Under the pieces are notes generated by a model. It worked only from the letters and a program-made list of their open reading frames with translations. It was not told the origin of the DNA and ran no database searches. Below, in pieces: positions 1-14,928 of a stretch of DNA of 23,726 bases (position 1 is the stretch's first letter; every line of letters starts with the position of its first letter). The translations under genes were made by a program, and so were the position numbers. The stretch covers positions 1 to 23,726 of the IMG/VR virus record IMGVR_UViG_3300027972_000050; one strand, given 5' to 3'. This DNA comes from a virus.

Positions 1-360
1 AATGCCGGCACATCCACTAAACCCCGTAATTACTGCAACCTCCGTATCATCAGCGACTAATCGCTTACTGACGGTACTATCATTGTAATTAGTAACATAA
101 TAATAGATATCGTTAAAGGCTATGCCACGAGGATTACTAAATCCCGTAATTACTGCAACCTCCGTATCATCAGCGACTAATCTCTTGCTGACTGTACTAT
201 TATTAAAATTAGTAACATAATAATATATATCGTTAAAGGCAATGTCGGCACATCCACTAAATCCCGTAATTAATGCAACCTGCGTATCGTCAGATATTAA
301 TCGCTTGCTGACGGTACTATCATTGTAATTAGTAACATAATAATATATGTCATTAAAGGC
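1..360 (-). repeat. Three in-frame 120-bp tandem repeats
   Basis: Units lie at 241-360, 121-240 and 1-120 and are roughly 85 to 90 % identical by eye. They are exactly 40 codons long, so the reading frame is kept. In the 1-120 versus 121-240 comparison most differences cluster in about ten bases that encode the inter-blade turn (SGCAG versus SNPRG). A degenerate end of a preceding unit (SSPIGIA) is visible at 361-380. The array may continue beyond the left edge. Confidence 0.93.
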
Positions 361-453
361 TATGCCAATAGGACTACTAATACTACCACCTATAGACCTA
401 ATATAAGTGTCCGTGTTTAAATAACCGCCTATCCTTCTATTTCTTTTTATCAT
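1..453 (-). CDS. YVTN-type beta-propeller protein, probable tail adhesin (partial)
   Basis: The gene starts at ATG 453-451 and runs off the left edge with no stop, giving 151 codons. It overlaps the stop of the upstream tail fibre gene in an ATGA, so it is translationally coupled to it. After about 31 N-terminal residues (starting MIKRNRRIGGYLN) come three 40-residue repeats, each beginning AFNDIYYYVTN followed by NSTVSKRL or DSTVSKRL and ending ITGFS. The phasing IAFN..YYYVTN...STVS..L...T.V..I matches YVTN/NHL-type beta-propeller blades, which form one four-stranded sheet each. A closed propeller usually has six to eight blades, so several hundred bases probably lie beyond the window. Position after the long fibre gene suggests a receptor-binding tail protein; an enzyme or chaperone role cannot be excluded. 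Frame and repeat are seen directly; the adhesin role is inferred. Confidence 0.82.
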   Translation of the reverse strand, partial: MIKRNRRIGGYLNTDTYIRSIGGSISSPIGIAFNDIYYYVTNYNDSTVSKRLISDDTQVALITGFSGCADIAFNDIYYYVTNFNNSTVSKRLVADDTEVAVITGFSNPRGIAFNDIYYYVTNYNDSTVSKRLVADDTEVAVITGFSGCAGI

Positions 454-9200: not shown

Positions 9201-11171
9201 TTAAAAGGCGTTAGATGTTCCGTTTACTTTTATAGGTATGCCACCCGGCGACCCTGAAACCGTTGACCTATTTTTAGGGTCGTTAATATTTATATCCACG
9301 TTTTGACGGCTTTCGTTTATTTGCGTGTTTGTAACCTCATTTTGAGTGGCTTGTGTATTGACCGCCTCTGGTGGCGTTTGAAATTCGCTACCAGTTGCGT
9401 CTAAACCCGCTTGAAAGTTGCCCAATTTATCCATAATTGGAGAAATAACACCTCCCAAACCGGGTATTTTAGATAACATTTTTAGAAAAAACATCATAGG
9501 GTCAATTAAACTTGACAATAAAACTGCTCCTATTTTCTTCAATCCTTCTAAAAATCCACCGTTTGCAAATGAGTTTTTAATGGCTTCCCAGCTATCCCAA
9601 AGTTTTTTAATAGCATTTACAAGCATTAAAATAGGTGCTAAAGCTATGATAAATGGCATTAACGCTGCTTTAACCCAAGTAGGTGCCGCCATAAATTTTG
9701 CTTTTAAGTCATCCCAATATTTTACAAGTAATACTATAACTGCAATAACTGCCACAATAGCCACTACGATTAAACCTATTGGGTTTGCTGTCATTGCAGC
9801 ATTCCACGCCCATTGTGCCGCGGTTGCCACATAAACCATCGAACGATAAGCCTTTAACGCTATCACATTACCTTTTAAAGCTATTGCACCTTTGCCGGCT
9901 ATAATTGCCTGAGCTGCTAAAGCTACGTTATAGGCTAAAGTGCCTAAGGTTACCAACTTATAAGCTAAATACATTGGTATTAATACCGATGCAACGGCCG
10001 CAATTAATCCAATAATCCAACTAAGGTTATTAGCTAAAAATCCCAACACTCCTGTAAACATTGATATACCTACAGAGCCTTGTGTAGCTCCTACAATTGC
10101 ATTATCAAAGGCGTTTTTTAGCTCTTTTATTTTGTTGGCTATTGTTGCCGAGTTTTTCGCTGCTTGTTCCTCCGCTTTTGAAGTATTTTCAATCTGTTTT
10201 ACCCAATCTTCATACGTCCCTAATTGGTCAAAAATTACTTTTCCTGCTGTAATGTTTTCTTTGCCAAATATTTTTGACATCGCCACACTGTCGTTCTGTA
10301 TTTTTGATAATTCACGGAGGCGGTCGGCTGTGCTTAAAGTCTTATCACTTAATACATCTAAACTAACACCATTTCTTTTAAACGCCTCCATAGCCTCCGA
10401 AGATGCACCTTTAGAAGTATCCATAAAAAGTAGTAAGTTTCTCGATGCCGTGCCAAGTTCCTCAGTAGGTAATTTTTTACCCAACACTTGAATTAATGCA
10501 ATAGACTCTGGTAGTGTAGTATTCATTGAGTTTGCGACCGCTCCAAACTTACTAAGCGCGTCAACTGATTTTTGAGTTGAAACCTGACCTACTATTTCAC
10601 CCGCCGTTAATTGTTGAACGGTTTGATTTGCCGATTCTGCACCCAAATTAAATTGGTTCATAGCTCCTGTCAACGCTTCCAACGCCGGTTGTACTTGCAT
10701 TCGTGAGGCTTTTGCTAGTAACACACCCGCCTCTGTAATTTGTCCTAATGCCTTTGGGTCGCTCAAATATTGTGACATAGCAGAGCCAACAGTTTGGAAA
10801 CCGTTGGCTATTTCTGACGCTGACATTTTAGATTTTGTTGCTAAGTCAAGAACCTGACCTTGCATATTTTCAAGTGCTTTACCACTAACTCCAGTTACTG
10901 CGGATAGCGAAGCCATTGAGTCATCAAACTTTACTATTGCATCGCCTGCCATATATGCTAAAGTGGCGATTGATGCAATACCTACCATTGACTTAAGTTG
11001 CCCACTTATACCACCGAGCGAACCTTTTAATCTGTTTGCATCCTGCTCAACTTTTTTAAAAGCGTTGCTCGAACTTGCTGCGAATTTACGGTTACGCTCT
11101 TCCATTTTGGATAGCACACCCGAAAATTTATCTACTGCGGAAAATCGTGCAACGGCGGAAAAAACAGTCAT
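9201..11171 (-). CDS. Tail tape measure protein, TP901 type
   Basis: 656 residues. The first 360 residues are helical and match the TP901 tape measure core: IASIATLAYMAGDAIVKFDD, LDLATKSKMSASEIANGF and ALTGAMNQFNLGAESANQT. Three long hydrophobic segments lie near residues 384 to 406, 464 to 485 and 499 to 520, typical of proteins that insert in the inner membrane during DNA ejection. The tail end is hydrophilic. At the usual figure of about 0.15 nm per residue, the tail would be close to 98 nm (an inference). The gene follows the 77-residue unknown gene across a 46-bp gap containing a TATATTTG box, so it may have its own promoter. No peptidase or lysozyme domain is apparent. Confidence 0.92.
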   Translation of the reverse strand: MTVFSAVARFSAVDKFSGVLSKMEERNRKFAASSSNAFKKVEQDANRLKGSLGGISGQLKSMVGIASIATLAYMAGDAIVKFDDSMASLSAVTGVSGKALENMQGQVLDLATKSKMSASEIANGFQTVGSAMSQYLSDPKALGQITEAGVLLAKASRMQVQPALEALTGAMNQFNLGAESANQTVQQLTAGEIVGQVSTQKSVDALSKFGAVANSMNTTLPESIALIQVLGKKLPTEELGTASRNLLLFMDTSKGASSEAMEAFKRNGVSLDVLSDKTLSTADRLRELSKIQNDSVAMSKIFGKENITAGKVIFDQLGTYEDWVKQIENTSKAEEQAAKNSATIANKIKELKNAFDNAIVGATQGSVGISMFTGVLGFLANNLSWIIGLIAAVASVLIPMYLAYKLVTLGTLAYNVALAAQAIIAGKGAIALKGNVIALKAYRSMVYVATAAQWAWNAAMTANPIGLIVVAIVAVIAVIVLLVKYWDDLKAKFMAAPTWVKAALMPFIIALAPILMLVNAIKKLWDSWEAIKNSFANGGFLEGLKKIGAVLLSSLIDPMMFFLKMLSKIPGLGGVISPIMDKLGNFQAGLDATGSEFQTPPEAVNTQATQNEVTNTQINESRQNVDININDPKNRSTVSGSPGGIPIKVNGTSNAF

Positions 11172-11217: not shown

Positions 11218-11451
11218 CTAAAGTTTGTTATTATATTTTAAGTTAATTTTTACCAATTTATCTATTCTATCCGTTGCCCTATTAAACTCTGAAACGGTTA
11301 AAAATTGAGCCTCAAATAGTGATAATAGTTGTTTTACTGATACTTCATAGCTTTTTATTTTCGCCTCGTTAAATGCTATGTTTTTAGCCTTTAATTGAGT
11401 TGATAATGATTGACTAGAATAGTAGTTTAGTTTGACGAAATGGGGTAGCAT
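11218..11451 (-). CDS. Small basic hypothetical protein (KilA-N cassette)
   Basis: 77 residues, Lys-rich and apparently all-helical, starting MLPHFVKLNYYSSQ and ending LVKINLKYNNKL. I recognise no family. It starts two bases after the KilA-N stop, so it is probably cotranslated from the same promoter. Its AT-rich codon choice resembles KilA-N and differs from the adjoining tail genes. No signal peptide or membrane segment is visible. It could be a partner of the KilA-N protein or an independent passenger; nothing in the sequence decides this. Confidence 0.65.
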   Translation of the reverse strand: MLPHFVKLNYYSSQSLSTQLKAKNIAFNEAKIKSYEVSVKQLLSLFEAQFLTVSEFNRATDRIDKLVKINLKYNNKL

Positions 11452-11453
11452 AG

Positions 11454-12080
11454 TTATTGATTTAATGATTTGTATTCATTTAAAGCCTTTTCAATCCCAA
11501 TCCTAATAGCTTGGTTGTTATCACGCAAAACTCCTGCTAATAAAGTAATATTTTCGTGTATTTTATCTCTTAATTTTAATTGTTCTTCATTTGCTTTTTG
11601 CCAATCATTAACCCCGCAAGCATTTTGTATATTCTGAGCTGTAATCGTTATTCCTCTGTGGTATCTACTTTTATTTGAACAATTTTCATATAAAGCACCT
11701 GCCATTTTTTTATAAGAGTCTCCCGAACTATTTCTATATTTTAATAATTCATCTAATAAAAATTTGTACGCTTCAATTTTTAATTTTGGGTCAATAGCTA
11801 AAGCCATATCCATAAAAATAAGCGGGTGCGCCCACGTTTCTCCACTCTTACCTCTTTTACTTGAGATAACTTCTTTTTCTTCTTTTTTAATTTCTTCAAT
11901 AAATTCTTTTGTCGGCTTTGAATTTATCCACGAATTAAAATTAAATAAAGCCATCTTATTTGATGCTCTATAAAAATTACCTGCTTTTTCTAAATCGTTT
12001 AAACAGAAAAAACCAGTTTTTGAATTTTGTCTAACTTTGCAATCAAACAAATTTCTAACCATCATTACTTGTGTTTCCAT
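11454..12080 (-). CDS. KilA-N domain protein (putative DNA-binding moron)
   Basis: 208 residues. Residues 1 to about 115 form a KilA-N domain: NFNSWINSKPTKEFIEEI around 47 to 64, then RGKSGETWAHPLIFMDMALA (76 to 95) with the conserved TWAHP at 82 to 86, and IEAYKFLLDELLKYRNSSGD to about 121. The C-terminal 85 residues are helical with a coiled-coil-like end (EEQLKLRDKIHENITLLAGVL). KilA-N domains are predicted to bind DNA and often occur in phage proteins of regulatory or antirepressor type. Its place between tail chaperone and tape measure is not structural. A terminator precedes it, a consensus promoter lies directly upstream, and its composition is AT-richer than the tail genes, marking it as an inserted, separately transcribed cargo gene. 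Domain identity is firm; function and target are unknown. Confidence 0.9.
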   Translation of the reverse strand: METQVMMVRNLFDCKVRQNSKTGFFCLNDLEKAGNFYRASNKMALFNFNSWINSKPTKEFIEEIKKEEKEVISSKRGKSGETWAHPLIFMDMALAIDPKLKIEAYKFLLDELLKYRNSSGDSYKKMAGALYENCSNKSRYHRGITITAQNIQNACGVNDWQKANEEQLKLRDKIHENITLLAGVLRDNNQAIRIGIEKALNEYKSLNQ

Positions 12081-12222: not shown

Positions 12223-12250
12223 TATAAACGTAGATATATCTACGTTTATA
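12223..12250. promoter_or_regulatory. Perfect 28-bp palindrome, possible operator
   Basis: The left arm TATAAACGTAGATA (12223-12236) is followed without spacer by its exact reverse complement (12237-12250). It lies between the chaperone terminator and the KilA-N promoter. Lack of a T-run and of a loop argues against a terminator and for a DNA site bound by a symmetrical protein, or a cruciform. Confidence 0.55.
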
Positions 12251-12281
12251 ACTTACTCATTTTCAATACTCAATTTTGAGC

Positions 12282-12309
12282 AAAAAAAAACCACCTATTA
12301 CAGTGGCTT
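12282..12309 (-). terminator. Intrinsic terminator after the chaperone frameshift extension
   Basis: On the minus strand the stem AAGCCAC / GTGGTTT (one G-U) with an 8-base loop is followed directly by a run of T. The stem begins at the last base of the -1 frame stop TGA. Plus-strand reading also gives a T-run after the stem (CATTTTTT), so it may work in both directions. Confidence 0.75.
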
Positions 12310-12892
12310 CATTTTTTCGGTAACGTCTTTTCTAATTGCTTATTATATTCTAGTATATCATCGTACCAATAGAATAAACCGTGATTATCTACTCTATCAA
12401 AATACATACTATCAACTATCGGAGGTGTCCACTTATAGAACCGGACAACGGATTTGACAACGTGGTCAAATCCGAGTCCCTCCTCTTCTATAAAAAATAA
12501 ACAGCAATTGAAGTGGCTCTATCAAAGTCGGGTGCCGACTCTAATTTTTTAATAATTCCTTTGGGCTGATTTGTCAATTGTGCAATAAGCCCAATTAAAC
12601 GACCTTCGCCATCGTTCGCGCTAATACCTTTCATAGCCTCCTGACGTTCACCTGCGGTCAATCTAAACTTAAAGTCTAACGATTTAACGCCGTCACCATC
12701 GCCAATTATAGGCCACACTAATTTTAATTCCATCGTGTTATCTTCATTGATAACCAAATCGCCATCTGTGATAGCTTCTAAGATAGTTTCTTCACTTCCT
12801 AGATTACCCTCACGTTTCTTTTCACCAATTCTACGAGCTTCCGCCCACTTGTTAAAGTCGTTCTGTGCGACTTCAAATGATACTTTTGTCAT
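12309..12892 (-). CDS. Tail assembly chaperone, -1 frameshift product (G-T type)
   Basis: The shared 134-residue N-terminal part is read to the TTT TTA codons at 12496-12491. Slipping back one base continues at ATA 12491-12489 for 60 more codons to TGA at 12311-12309, giving 194 residues. The extension has the acidic start IEEEGLGFDHVV, then YKWTPPIVDSMYFDRV and GLFYWYDDILEYNKQL, with an aromatic helix like those of downstream chaperone domains. The extension ends where a terminator begins, so the coding space is fully accounted for. In lambda G/GT and related phages a minor frameshifted product is needed for tape measure and tube assembly. The slip heptamer, open frame and position are seen; the frameshift itself is inferred. 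Confidence 0.8.
12449..12497 (-). other. Programmed -1 frameshift site: slippery heptamer and hairpin
   Basis: Heptamer T TTT TTA occupies 12497-12491 in phase with the chaperone codons (TAT TTT TTA TAG), the same X XXY YYZ form as the HIV-1 slip site. The zero-frame TAG follows immediately. Sixteen bases later a 10-bp stem forms, CGGATTTGAC (12474-12465) with GTCAAATCCG (12458-12449), enclosing a 6-base loop. The spacer is longer than the usual 5 to 9 bases. A purine-rich AGGAGGGA lies within the spacer. Confidence 0.78.
12488..12892 (-). CDS. Tail assembly chaperone, zero-frame product (G type, Mu gp41-like)
   Basis: 134 residues. The N-terminal 25 residues are helical; a beta-rich core follows with NTMELKLVWPIIGDGDGVKS, where the L..PI...G..V pattern is shared with Mu gp41-like and other chaperones, then KFRLTAGERQEAMKGI and a helix-rich end RLIGLIAQLTNQPKGIIKKL. 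This form should coat the tape measure during tail assembly and is absent from the virion. It ends one codon after a slippery heptamer that yields the longer form. A hairpin terminator lies between the tube gene and this start, so its expression may be set below that of the tube. Family call is by position and pattern. Confidence 0.82.
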   Translation of the reverse strand: MTKVSFEVAQNDFNKWAEARRIGEKKREGNLGSEETILEAITDGDLVINEDNTMELKLVWPIIGDGDGVKSLDFKFRLTAGERQEAMKGISANDGEGRLIGLIAQLTNQPKGIIKKLESAPDFDRATSIAVYFL

Positions 12893-12912: not shown

Positions 12913-12947
12913 ATAAAAAAACCGACTCCCATTTCTGAAAGTCGGTT
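12913..12947 (-). terminator. Intrinsic terminator between tube and chaperone genes
   Basis: Minus-strand stem AACCGACT / AGTCGGTT (8 bp, perfect) with a 12-base loop is followed by TTTTTTATT. It lies 20 bases past the tube stop. Readthrough is expected to feed the chaperone gene. A TATATTTG box at 12948-12955 sits just upstream but has no -33 element. Confidence 0.82.
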
Positions 12948-12966
12948 CAAATATATAGAAAATTTA

Positions 12967-13377
12967 TTAAAGTTTTTCTAATTTTCCACCACCTGCTACT
13001 TTAAAGCCGGTTACTGTGCCTGCGTTTTTGTTGCCTTTCAAATCCCCACTGATTGAGCCGGTGCCTTTGTAAACTGTACCGTCCAAAAATGAGAACGTCC
13101 ACGGTGCTTCTACAGTACTATCTGCAATTTGTTGCAAACTTTCCAACGTATCTGGGTCTGATGCCCAACCAACCGGAGGACAAGCAACGCTCCAACGTTT
13201 GCGGTTCATTTGTTTGATGTTAGTGCCTGCGCCCGTTACCGAGTCGTCACCATCTGCAACAACGTAACCGCCAAAGTCGATTTCCACATCTTCGCTACCT
13301 TTCGGGTCGAATCTAAAAGAGCCTAAAGTCGGGTGATTGACCGTTATTTCTATTAAGTCACCTCCTACATATGCCAT
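12967..13377 (-). CDS. Tail tube protein (Mu gpM-like)
   Basis: 136 residues, the usual size for the single-domain tube subunit of contractile tails. It is beta-rich, starting MAYVGGDLIEITVNHPTLGS, with FDPKGSEDVEIDFGGYVVAD, a loop containing WSVACPPVGWASDPDTLE, and a Gly-rich C-terminus (GTVTGFKVAGGGKLEKL). It directly follows the sheath gene (24-bp gap), the invariant order of sheath and tube. It polymerises inside the sheath as stacked hexamers and is needed in many copies. A terminator right behind it fits a highly expressed last gene. The call rests on order, length and beta-rich pattern. Confidence 0.85.
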   Translation of the reverse strand: MAYVGGDLIEITVNHPTLGSFRFDPKGSEDVEIDFGGYVVADGDDSVTGAGTNIKQMNRKRWSVACPPVGWASDPDTLESLQQIADSTVEAPWTFSFLDGTVYKGTGSISGDLKGNKNAGTVTGFKVAGGGKLEKL

Positions 13378-13401: not shown

Positions 13402-14928
13402 TTAAAATGCAAAATTAGCCTCTGCATCTGTTGATGCTATTCTTACCGTTCCGGTGCGCTTGTACTTAAATGTACTATTTAAGCGGTCTGGATTTGAACC
13501 GCTCACTTCCACAACTAAAGACTCTTTGCTAAAAGCTGATTGAGTAATTAGCGCGCGTTGTGCGAGGTCGTCAAAGTATTCAAACAAAATACCCTTCCAT
13601 TGTTTCGGCTTAATCACATTTGCAACCGTGATAAAGTCATCATCACCCGCAAGGGCTTTGTCTTTAACGTTCGCTTGCTCAAGTAGTAAGTAACCAAATC
13701 GGATATTCCAATCTAAAATAAGATTTCTTGAATATCTGAATTGTGGAGGAATTTCACCCGCCGGACGGTAAGTAGTTACCATATCTTGAACGGTATATAC
13801 TCCATTCTCTAAACTTACAGTAGATGCACCATTTTTAACTAAATAATCACGGCTATCATAATCAGCCATATCGCCAATTAATCCATCTGAAGGCACTGGC
13901 ATATCTAAATAAGCCTGACCATTTACATCTAAGTGAGGTGTATCTTGTGCGGTGCGCGCCATAAGCAAAATAACATTTGCAGCAGCTTCCCAATCAAACC
14001 CTTTTGAGTTTGGCGCGGGTGCTAGTACGTTTGTTACTTGGTTCATTCTTGCTGATGCTCCCGTAATTGCTACGATTGCATCCTTATCGCTTAAAGTCGA
14101 ACCCCAAACAGCTACAAACGGTTTGAAAACAATACCGGTGTAACGTCCCGTTGGTGTTGTTGCTGATGGTGTACCATTAAACGCTTCAAGTGCGGCGTGT
14201 TGTGCCGTTCCGTAAGGATTTAAAACGATGGTATTCCACTCATTACCAAACTGAGTTAATGAAGTCGCAATAGACTCCGCACCGGCTCCTGAAACTTTGT
14301 TATTTACAACATAAGTTAAACCGCTTGCATCGCCTAATGTGTTTACAGCAACGTCTAAGGATGCTGATGTTGCTCCGTACCATTTTGACGCAATTGTAAC
14401 TACTCCTAATAAGTTAGTAGCTGTTACTGGTGCGTTGGTCACATTGTTAATTGCATCTTTGATTTTGCCACCAATAATAGTAGGCGTGTCGGTTGATGCA
14501 ATAATAAATTCGTAATATTCACCATCTACGTTATCACGTCCGTTGATAATTAAACGGTGTGCAACGTTCTTGTTAGGCGTTCCGCTTACCGTTACATCAA
14601 TAGTTGTTCCAGTGCTACCATTTGCCTCCAATTGTGGATAGTAAACGGTAGGAATACCACCAATACCACCACCAAAAATAGGGCGCAAAATACGAGCTAT
14701 TTGATGAGCCGGTGAGCCGTAACCCGCCACATCACCAATCTCGTTGGCACTTGTAAAATTAATAGGTGTCGTTCCTACAGTTGATTGATTAGCGTGATTT
14801 GCTGGTCCTAAAATAGCAACACGCATTGGCAAATTTTGCCCCCCAACTTTAGAAACTCCTTTGGTTATTTTGTAACCAACTACCCTACTTAATCGTTCAA
14901 GTCCAACAGCATTTGAAATATCTGCCAT
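13402..14928 (-). CDS. Contractile tail sheath protein (Mu gpL-like)
   Basis: 508 residues, close to Mu gpL. The N-terminus GLERLSRVVGYKITKGVSKV and the following LPMRVAILGPANHANQST are typical of Mu-family sheaths. A central domain with TIDVTVSGTPNKNVAHRLII and KIKDAINN matches the insertion domain that decorates the sheath surface. The C-terminal third (RYSRNLILDWNIRFGYLLLE, then SKESLVVEVSGSNPDRLNST and a final RTGTVRIAST) is the conserved contraction core. It proves a contractile tail. It begins a base after the tail-terminator candidate's stop with an A-rich leader and is followed by the tube gene. Confidence 0.93.
   Translation of the reverse strand: MADISNAVGLERLSRVVGYKITKGVSKVGGQNLPMRVAILGPANHANQSTVGTTPINFTSANEIGDVAGYGSPAHQIARILRPIFGGGIGGIPTVYYPQLEANGSTGTTIDVTVSGTPNKNVAHRLIINGRDNVDGEYYEFIIASTDTPTIIGGKIKDAINNVTNAPVTATNLLGVVTIASKWYGATSASLDVAVNTLGDASGLTYVVNNKVSGAGAESIATSLTQFGNEWNTIVLNPYGTAQHAALEAFNGTPSATTPTGRYTGIVFKPFVAVWGSTLSDKDAIVAITGASARMNQVTNVLAPAPNSKGFDWEAAANVILLMARTAQDTPHLDVNGQAYLDMPVPSDGLIGDMADYDSRDYLVKNGASTVSLENGVYTVQDMVTTYRPAGEIPPQFRYSRNLILDWNIRFGYLLLEQANVKDKALAGDDDFITVANVIKPKQWKGILFEYFDDLAQRALITQSAFSKESLVVEVSGSNPDRLNSTFKYKRTGTVRIASTDAEANFAF

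What the first reader, a model, noticed from the sequence alone, without database searches (positions are those of the whole stretch)
12309..12892. Unannotated -1 frameshift product of the tail chaperone, 194 residues
Seen directly: slippery T TTT TTA lies in phase with the chaperone codons immediately before TAG, the -1 frame stays open for 60 codons, and it ends precisely at the base of a terminator stem. The extension encodes an aromatic, acidic-to-basic domain such as chaperone 'T' domains carry. Known: lambda G/GT and many myophages use frameshifting to make a minor long chaperone. Inference: this phage uses a -1 slip on an HIV-like heptamer, and the second domain would be missed by ORF calling.
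Basis: partly seen in the sequence, partly recalled or inferred. Interest (0 to 1): 0.8.

Follow-up and report, generated by a model that had tools for sequence, protein, structure and literature searches.

The report
Frameshifted tail chaperone of Bacteroidota myophage
This virus of a Bacteroidota-type bacterium almost certainly makes its tail-building helper protein in a short and a long form by letting ribosomes slip back one base on a run of six Ts, a well-known phage trick found here in a poorly annotated phage family, together with a conserved RNA fold just after the slip site.

Summary
T_TTT_TTA lies in phase directly before the TAG of a 134-residue ORF, and the -1 frame continues for 60 residues (194 in all), ending at a terminator hairpin. 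Relatives settle the reading. The extension is a conserved domain (phrog_5697) in at least 56 distinct loci, among them Flavobacterium and Cellulophaga phages, mostly unannotated. In all of them it lies out of frame with, and overlaps, a homologous upstream ORF (phrog_4648), and all have a T5-T8 run at the junction (1.6% background). Close pairs show purifying selection. The N-terminal part looks like a P2 gpE/Mu gp41-type chaperone; the extension resembles the P2 E' T domain by profile comparison. Best reading: -1 programmed frameshifting giving a G/GT (E/E+E') pair. (1) An RNA fold starts 7 nt after the heptamer, kept in the nearest relative with two compensatory changes; family-wide, folding exceeds synonymous-codon controls most strongly here. 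(2) A sister clade lacks the heptamer and slips on U_UUU before a stop or sense codon. (3) Eight relatives need +1 (or -2), some on the same slip site as -1 relatives. A new member of a known kind; shifting itself was not measured.

The parts
12488..12892 (-). 0-frame ORF: tail assembly chaperone, short form (G-like), 134 aa
   Evidence: phrog_4648 E 8.9e-10; Phage_TAC_7 weakly (0.043 here; 9 of 48 homologs, best 5.5e-4); AlphaFold2 pLDDT 93.6; Foldseek match to 'Tape measure chaperone' of Burkholderia phage Mica, E 3e-3; lies next to the tail tube gene
12491..12497 (-). slippery heptamer T_TTT_TTA, in phase, immediately before the TAG
   Evidence: T run at this place in 56/56 relatives
12309..12491 (-). 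-1 frame extension (T-like domain), 60 residues, stop TGA 12311-12309
   Evidence: phrog_5697 E 1.3e-12; 54/54 relatives match it; purifying selection in close pairs; profile match to P2-like E'; no ATG/GTG/TTG in this frame before the conserved WTPP motif
12484..12490 (-). 7-nt spacer between heptamer and RNA structure
12421..12483 (-). downstream RNA structure: outer stem 12483-12479/12425-12421, hairpin 12474-12465/12458-12449, hairpin 12447-12439/12434-12426
   Evidence: MFE -28.9 kcal/mol, z -3.39 against dinucleotide shuffles, z -4.11 against synonymous resampling; 23 pairs, 97.8% of cells paired over window and L008, 2 double and 4 single pair-keeping changes
12287..12310 (-). intrinsic-terminator-like hairpin overlapping the stop of the extension
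   Evidence: a counterpart at the same place in L008
12919..12948 (-). intrinsic-terminator-like hairpin between tail tube and chaperone genes
   Evidence: a counterpart in L008
12967..13377 (-). tail tube protein gene (context)
   Evidence: phrog_4699 E 3.4e-36
13402..14928 (-). tail sheath gene: contractile tail (context)
   Evidence: phrog_165 E 4.9e-85
9201..11171 (-). tape measure protein gene (context)
   Evidence: phrog_28 E 3.9e-56

Best explanation
The locus encodes a tail assembly chaperone in two forms, like lambda G/GT and P2 E/E+E'. Most ribosomes read the 134-aa short form and stop at TAG. A minority, with P-site tRNA-Phe on UUU and A-site tRNA-Leu on UUA of U_UUU_UUA, slip back one base, helped by an RNA fold that starts 7 nt downstream, and continue for 60 codons to make a 194-aa fusion with a C-terminal helical T domain. 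By analogy with lambda, the short form and the N-terminal half of the long form coat the tape measure protein, and the T domain recruits the tail tube subunit. Shown: ORF layout, conserved overlap, T run, RNA-fold signal, selection on the extension, similarity to the P2 T domain. Inferred: that slipping occurs, its efficiency, that the RNA stimulates it, and the tail-assembly role.
For: Geometry exact. Extension conserved and out of frame with a homologous upstream ORF in all 66 loci (63 in -1, 3 in +1/-2). T5 run at the junction 56/56 against 1.6% background. Purifying selection on the -1 frame: L011/L012 0 nonsynonymous and 8 synonymous differences, L064/L085 1 and 8. No start codon in the extension frame ahead of the conserved core in the window or in 15 other loci. 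Downstream folding: mean z -2.37 over 56 loci against synonymous resampling, -0.3 to -0.9 in other stretches of the same genes (Mann-Whitney p 1.6e-12); 23-pair structure kept in L008 with compensatory changes. N part with TAC_7-like sequence and TAC-like fold; T part against P2-like E' hhalign probability 84, E 7.7e-6. Gene order sheath - tube - chaperone/T - tape measure.
Against: No expression data. U_UUU_UUA is less shifty in E. coli than A_AAA_AAG (PMC5009743), and nothing is known for this host. The N part is below Pfam's cut-off for Phage_TAC_7. The T-domain model is only moderately confident (pLDDT 76.6) and has no significant fold match. A KilA-N gene and a small ORF separate T from the tape measure gene in the window, unlike most relatives. 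The shuffle control on the two-sequence RNA alignment (129/500) is uninformative because only two rows exist.
Confidence: 0.92

Rival explanations
1. Transcriptional slippage: RNA polymerase stutters on the T run, giving mRNAs with one base more or fewer, and the fusion is then translated without ribosomal slipping.
For: T runs of 7-8 occur in many relatives; insertion or deletion of one U would serve both -1 and +1 relatives.
Against: The window has only six Ts and a whole sister clade only five or six. An in-phase T_TTT is kept in 54 of 56 loci, though the conserved Phe residues partly explain that. The RNA fold just downstream at ribosome-appropriate spacing is not needed for transcriptional slippage.
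Confidence: 0.06
2. The extension is a separate small gene translated from its own start or by coupling to the upstream stop.
For: Some public records annotate it as a separate hypothetical protein, and many relatives have an ATG, GTG or TTG somewhere in the frame.
Against: The window and 15 other loci have no usual start codon in the frame before the conserved core; starts, where present, lie inside the conserved core or at unconserved places; the T run and the out-of-frame overlap are universal.
Confidence: 0.02
3. Chance open frame or a decayed gene end without function.
For: A 60-codon open frame has about 1.7% chance from base composition.
Against: Conserved protein domain with purifying selection across dozens of loci.
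Confidence: 0.005

Closest known systems
Phage P2 E / E+E' (Peduoviridae; PF10109 and PF06528)
   Same: Chaperone between tail tube and tape measure genes of a contractile-tail phage; U-run heptamer in phase near the 3' end (P2 T_TTT_TTG); -1 extension of similar length with an HW-x-P motif, profile match probability 84, E 7.7e-6.
   Different: P2-like phages are reported to have no downstream hairpin (PMC3091744) whereas this family has a strong fold there; here the slip site is directly at the stop; sequence identity is too low for ordinary search; relatives here include U_UUU-stop sites and +1 members.
Phage lambda G / GT
   Same: Same logic: a minor -1 extended form of a tail chaperone; slip near the gene's end (PMC5009743).
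   Different: Different slip sequence and no sequence similarity shown; a siphophage rather than a contractile-tail phage.
Phage Mu gp41/gp42 (-2) and halovirus HSTV-2 (+1) chaperone shifts
   Same: Show that tail chaperones use different shift directions in different phages (PMC5009743).
   Different: Here both directions occur among close homologs, in some cases on the same slip site.
HIV-1 gag-pol U_UUU_UUA with downstream stem
   Same: Same heptamer letters and an RNA structure a few nucleotides downstream.
   Different: Analogy only; no relation.

Membership tests
Tailed-phage tail assembly chaperone programmed frameshift (G/GT, E/E+E') | chaperone ORF between tail tube and tape measure genes | tested here: met
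   tube 12967-13377, chaperone 12488-12892, tape measure 9201-11171; a long ORF, annotated as tape measure in the named phages, follows closely in most relatives; two extra ORFs lie between in the window
Tailed-phage tail assembly chaperone programmed frameshift (G/GT, E/E+E') | slippery site near the 3' end with an overlapping open alternative frame, conserved in relatives | tested here: met
Tailed-phage tail assembly chaperone programmed frameshift (G/GT, E/E+E') | alternative frame under protein-level selection | tested here: met
Tailed-phage tail assembly chaperone programmed frameshift (G/GT, E/E+E') | both products made at a fixed ratio and needed for tails | not testable with these tools
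   needs reporter, proteomics or phage genetics
Phage_TAC_7 (PF10109; P2 E, Mu gp41) | profile score above the gathering cut-off of 25 bits | tested here: not met
   14.3 bits for the window; 9 of 48 homologs match at E up to 0.1, best 5.5e-4; so similar to, but not filed as, PF10109
P2 E' T domain (PF06528) | sequence or profile similarity | tested here: inconclusive
   single-sequence E 0.056 in one homolog; profile-profile probability 84, E 7.7e-6 over 42 columns
phrog_4648 / phrog_5697 pair | profile match of each half | tested here: met
   48/48 and 54/54 members; both families listed as unknown function

The most novel reading that the evidence does not exclude
The family uses a direction-neutral slip site: a short U run at the end of the chaperone gene yields both -1 and +1 shifts, so single-base gains or losses between slip site and T domain are tolerated and the required direction has flipped repeatedly. 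In the -1 lineages a downstream RNA fold does the stimulating in place of the upstream Shine-Dalgarno element that Bacteroidota ribosomes largely cannot use.
Probability: 0.35. Interest if true: 0.65.

Novelty: new member of a known kind. Interest (0 to 1): 0.42.

Why it matters
It gives a function to two 'unknown' phage protein families (phrog_4648 and phrog_5697) as the short and extended parts of a tail chaperone, and would correct annotation in dozens of Flavobacterium and Cellulophaga phages. It also offers a natural series of -1 and +1 shift sites with near-identical slip sequences, with and without a strong downstream RNA fold, in hosts whose ribosomes hide the anti-Shine-Dalgarno sequence: a useful test set for what sets frameshift direction.

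Tried and rejected
Single-sequence searches of viral and genome contigs for the chaperone or extension found no relative; an alignment of four relatives was needed. tblastn of the chaperone alone against phages found only one weak hit that was not followed. Solved-structure searches gave nothing meaningful for either part, and Foldseek gave nothing for the T-domain model. Rfam had no significant family for the RNA structure. A single consensus RNA structure for the family was not pursued: the register of the stems differs between clades, and the alignment of eight U_UUU-stop members shows only modest covariation. An upstream Shine-Dalgarno-like stimulator was looked for and is nearly absent (1 of 56 against 12% background). 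phrog_5697 is rare in a sample of bacterial genomes of the class of the Bacteroidetes MAG L089 (2 of 395). Paper searches found no report of this frameshift in these phages; the library is open-access only.

Full report
What is there. On the minus strand of this 23.7-kb virus record (its whole held genome) lies a contractile-tail module: sheath (phrog_165), tube (phrog_4699), a 134-aa ORF, and after a KilA-N gene and a small ORF the tape measure gene (phrog_28). The 134-aa ORF ends ...GTT TAT TTT TTA TAG. The heptamer T_TTT_TTA (12497-12491) is in phase, and the -1 frame continues ATA GAA GAG GAG ... to TGA at 12311-12309, giving 194 residues. The stop overlaps a terminator-like hairpin at 12310-12287.

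Is it more than chance? In the window's other genes, none of 5,789 60-codon stretches of the -1 frame is open; from base composition the chance is about 1.7%. Homology decides: the extension matches phrog_5697 (E 1.3e-12) and the short ORF phrog_4648 (8.9e-10), both of unknown function. tblastn finds the extension in 79 Flavobacterium and 7 Cellulophaga phage records, most of those listed with no gene annotated there. With a four-member alignment, 80 viral loci were retrieved, and two loci in metagenome-assembled genomes, one titled Bacteroidetes and one Cocleimonas.

Anatomy across relatives. In 66 loci with an intact upstream ORF (56 distinct T tails, the window included), every extension overlaps the end of a homologous upstream ORF out of frame: 63 in -1, 3 in +1/-2. 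All 56 have at least five Ts in a row within 17 nt of the 0-frame stop; the background in the same ORFs is 1.6%. These loci are related, so the count is not 56 independent events. All 54 extensions and all 48 upstream ORFs tested match the same two PHROGs. Between close relatives the extension changes mostly silently (0 nonsynonymous and 8 synonymous in L011/L012; 1 and 8 in L064/L085), as the upstream part does. The window and 15 other loci have no ATG, GTG or TTG in the extension frame before the conserved W-x-P motif, which argues against separate initiation.

What the two parts are. The N part gives a confident model (pLDDT 93.6). Its named structural neighbours include 'Tape measure chaperone' of Burkholderia phage Mica (E 3e-3) and, weakly, other tail assembly chaperones; the three best matches have no name in the table. 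Nine of 48 homologs match Phage_TAC_7, the P2 E/Mu gp41 family, best E 5.5e-4; the window itself is below the curated cut-off. The extension is predicted as three helices (pLDDT 76.6) with a motif HW-x-P...LY-DD-D..GL.YWY. Compared as profiles with nine P2-like E' extensions it aligns over 42 columns with probability 84 and E 7.7e-6, matching the HWPP motif of E'. P2 itself has T_TTT_TTG in the same phase, as published (PMC3091744, PMC3931495).

The 75 nt after the heptamer fold at -28.9 kcal/mol (z -3.39 against dinucleotide shuffles): an outer 5-bp stem starting 7 nt after the heptamer encloses a 10-bp hairpin and a second hairpin. In the nearest relative L008 (about 58% protein identity, synonymous sites of the extension saturated) 22 of 23 pairs are kept, two outer-stem pairs with changes on both sides and four others with one-sided changes; sliding the partners by 1-3 columns drops pairing to 33-48%. 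The tool's shuffle control (129/500) cannot be informative with two rows. Over all 56 loci the stretch just after the junction folds better than synonymous resamples of the same peptide (mean z -2.37, 57% below -2); other stretches of the same genes average -0.3 to -0.9 (Mann-Whitney p 1.6e-12; relatedness not corrected). Stem register differs between clades, so the presence of a fold is conserved more than one particular structure. Upstream Shine-Dalgarno-like stimulators are nearly absent (1/56 against 12%). Flavobacterium johnsoniae ribosomes have an occluded anti-Shine-Dalgarno sequence (PMC8710568), so relying on downstream RNA would make sense; that link is inference, and the window's host is known only through kinship with Bacteroidota phages.

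Two slip-site clades and flips of direction. A tree of 47 members splits (SH-aLRT 96) into a heptamer clade holding the window (T_TTT_TTN, with two variants) and a clade with U_UUU followed by a stop or a sense codon. A second scan brought the +1/-2 members to eight distinct loci, including the isolate FL-1; the tree of that scan needs at least three changes of direction, two forced by starred branches. L113 (-1) and L122 (+1) share GCA_ACA_GTT_TTT_TCA_TA around the slip site; a one-base difference in the stretch between slip site and T domain goes with the direction needed. Re-pairing of tRNA-Phe on a U6 run is plausible in both directions; +1 and -2 cannot be told apart here. In L124, L138 and L141 the stop lies a few codons further from the T run, so their folding windows are misplaced.

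Mechanism and comparison. The best-supported account is programmed -1 ribosomal frameshifting producing a minor long chaperone, as in lambda G/GT and P2 E/E+E'. Review literature already states that tailed phages use -1, -2 or +1 in this gene pair (PMC5009743), so the kind is known. What is added here is the assignment of phrog_4648/5697 to it, the downstream fold at a U-run site of the P2 type, and direction flips among close homologs. Transcriptional slippage remains a minor rival, mainly for relatives with T8 runs. No product was observed; reporter and mass-spectrometry tests are listed.

Noticed in passing
window 11454-12080 (-) and 11218-11451 (-): A KilA-N domain gene (PF04383, E 4.5e-11) and a 77-aa ORF sit between the T extension and the tape measure gene; in most relatives a long ORF (tape measure where annotated) follows within about 100 nt, so this looks like a later insertion.
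   Followed up: partly
window 12223-12250: A perfect 28-nt palindrome TATAAACGTAGATATATCTACGTTTATA between the terminator after T and the KilA-N gene; possibly an operator or an insertion scar.
   Followed up: no
window 12919-12948 and 12287-12310 (-): The chaperone gene is bracketed by terminator-like hairpins on both sides; L008, L027 and L046 show the same arrangement. Could grade expression tube > chaperone > tape measure.
   Followed up: partly
window about 12272-12315: A 44-nt stretch over the terminator is 86% identical to Pseudoalteromonas phage J2-1, which shows no other match to the queried 701 bases.
   Followed up: no
L003, L028, L053, L108, L110, L114, L116, L122: Relatives whose T domain lies in +1 (or -2) instead of -1, on slip sites like those of -1 relatives.
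   Followed up: partly
L004, L015, L035, L058, L073, L074, L076, L087: Relatives in which the stop codon directly follows GTT_TTT (U_UUU_UAG/UAA), most with very strong downstream folds: possible P-site slippage at a stop codon.
   Followed up: partly
window 1-453 (-): Near-identical repeats (AFNDIYYYVTNYNDSTVSKRLV...) in a protein running off the window's end, probably a propeller-like tail-fibre protein.
   Followed up: no
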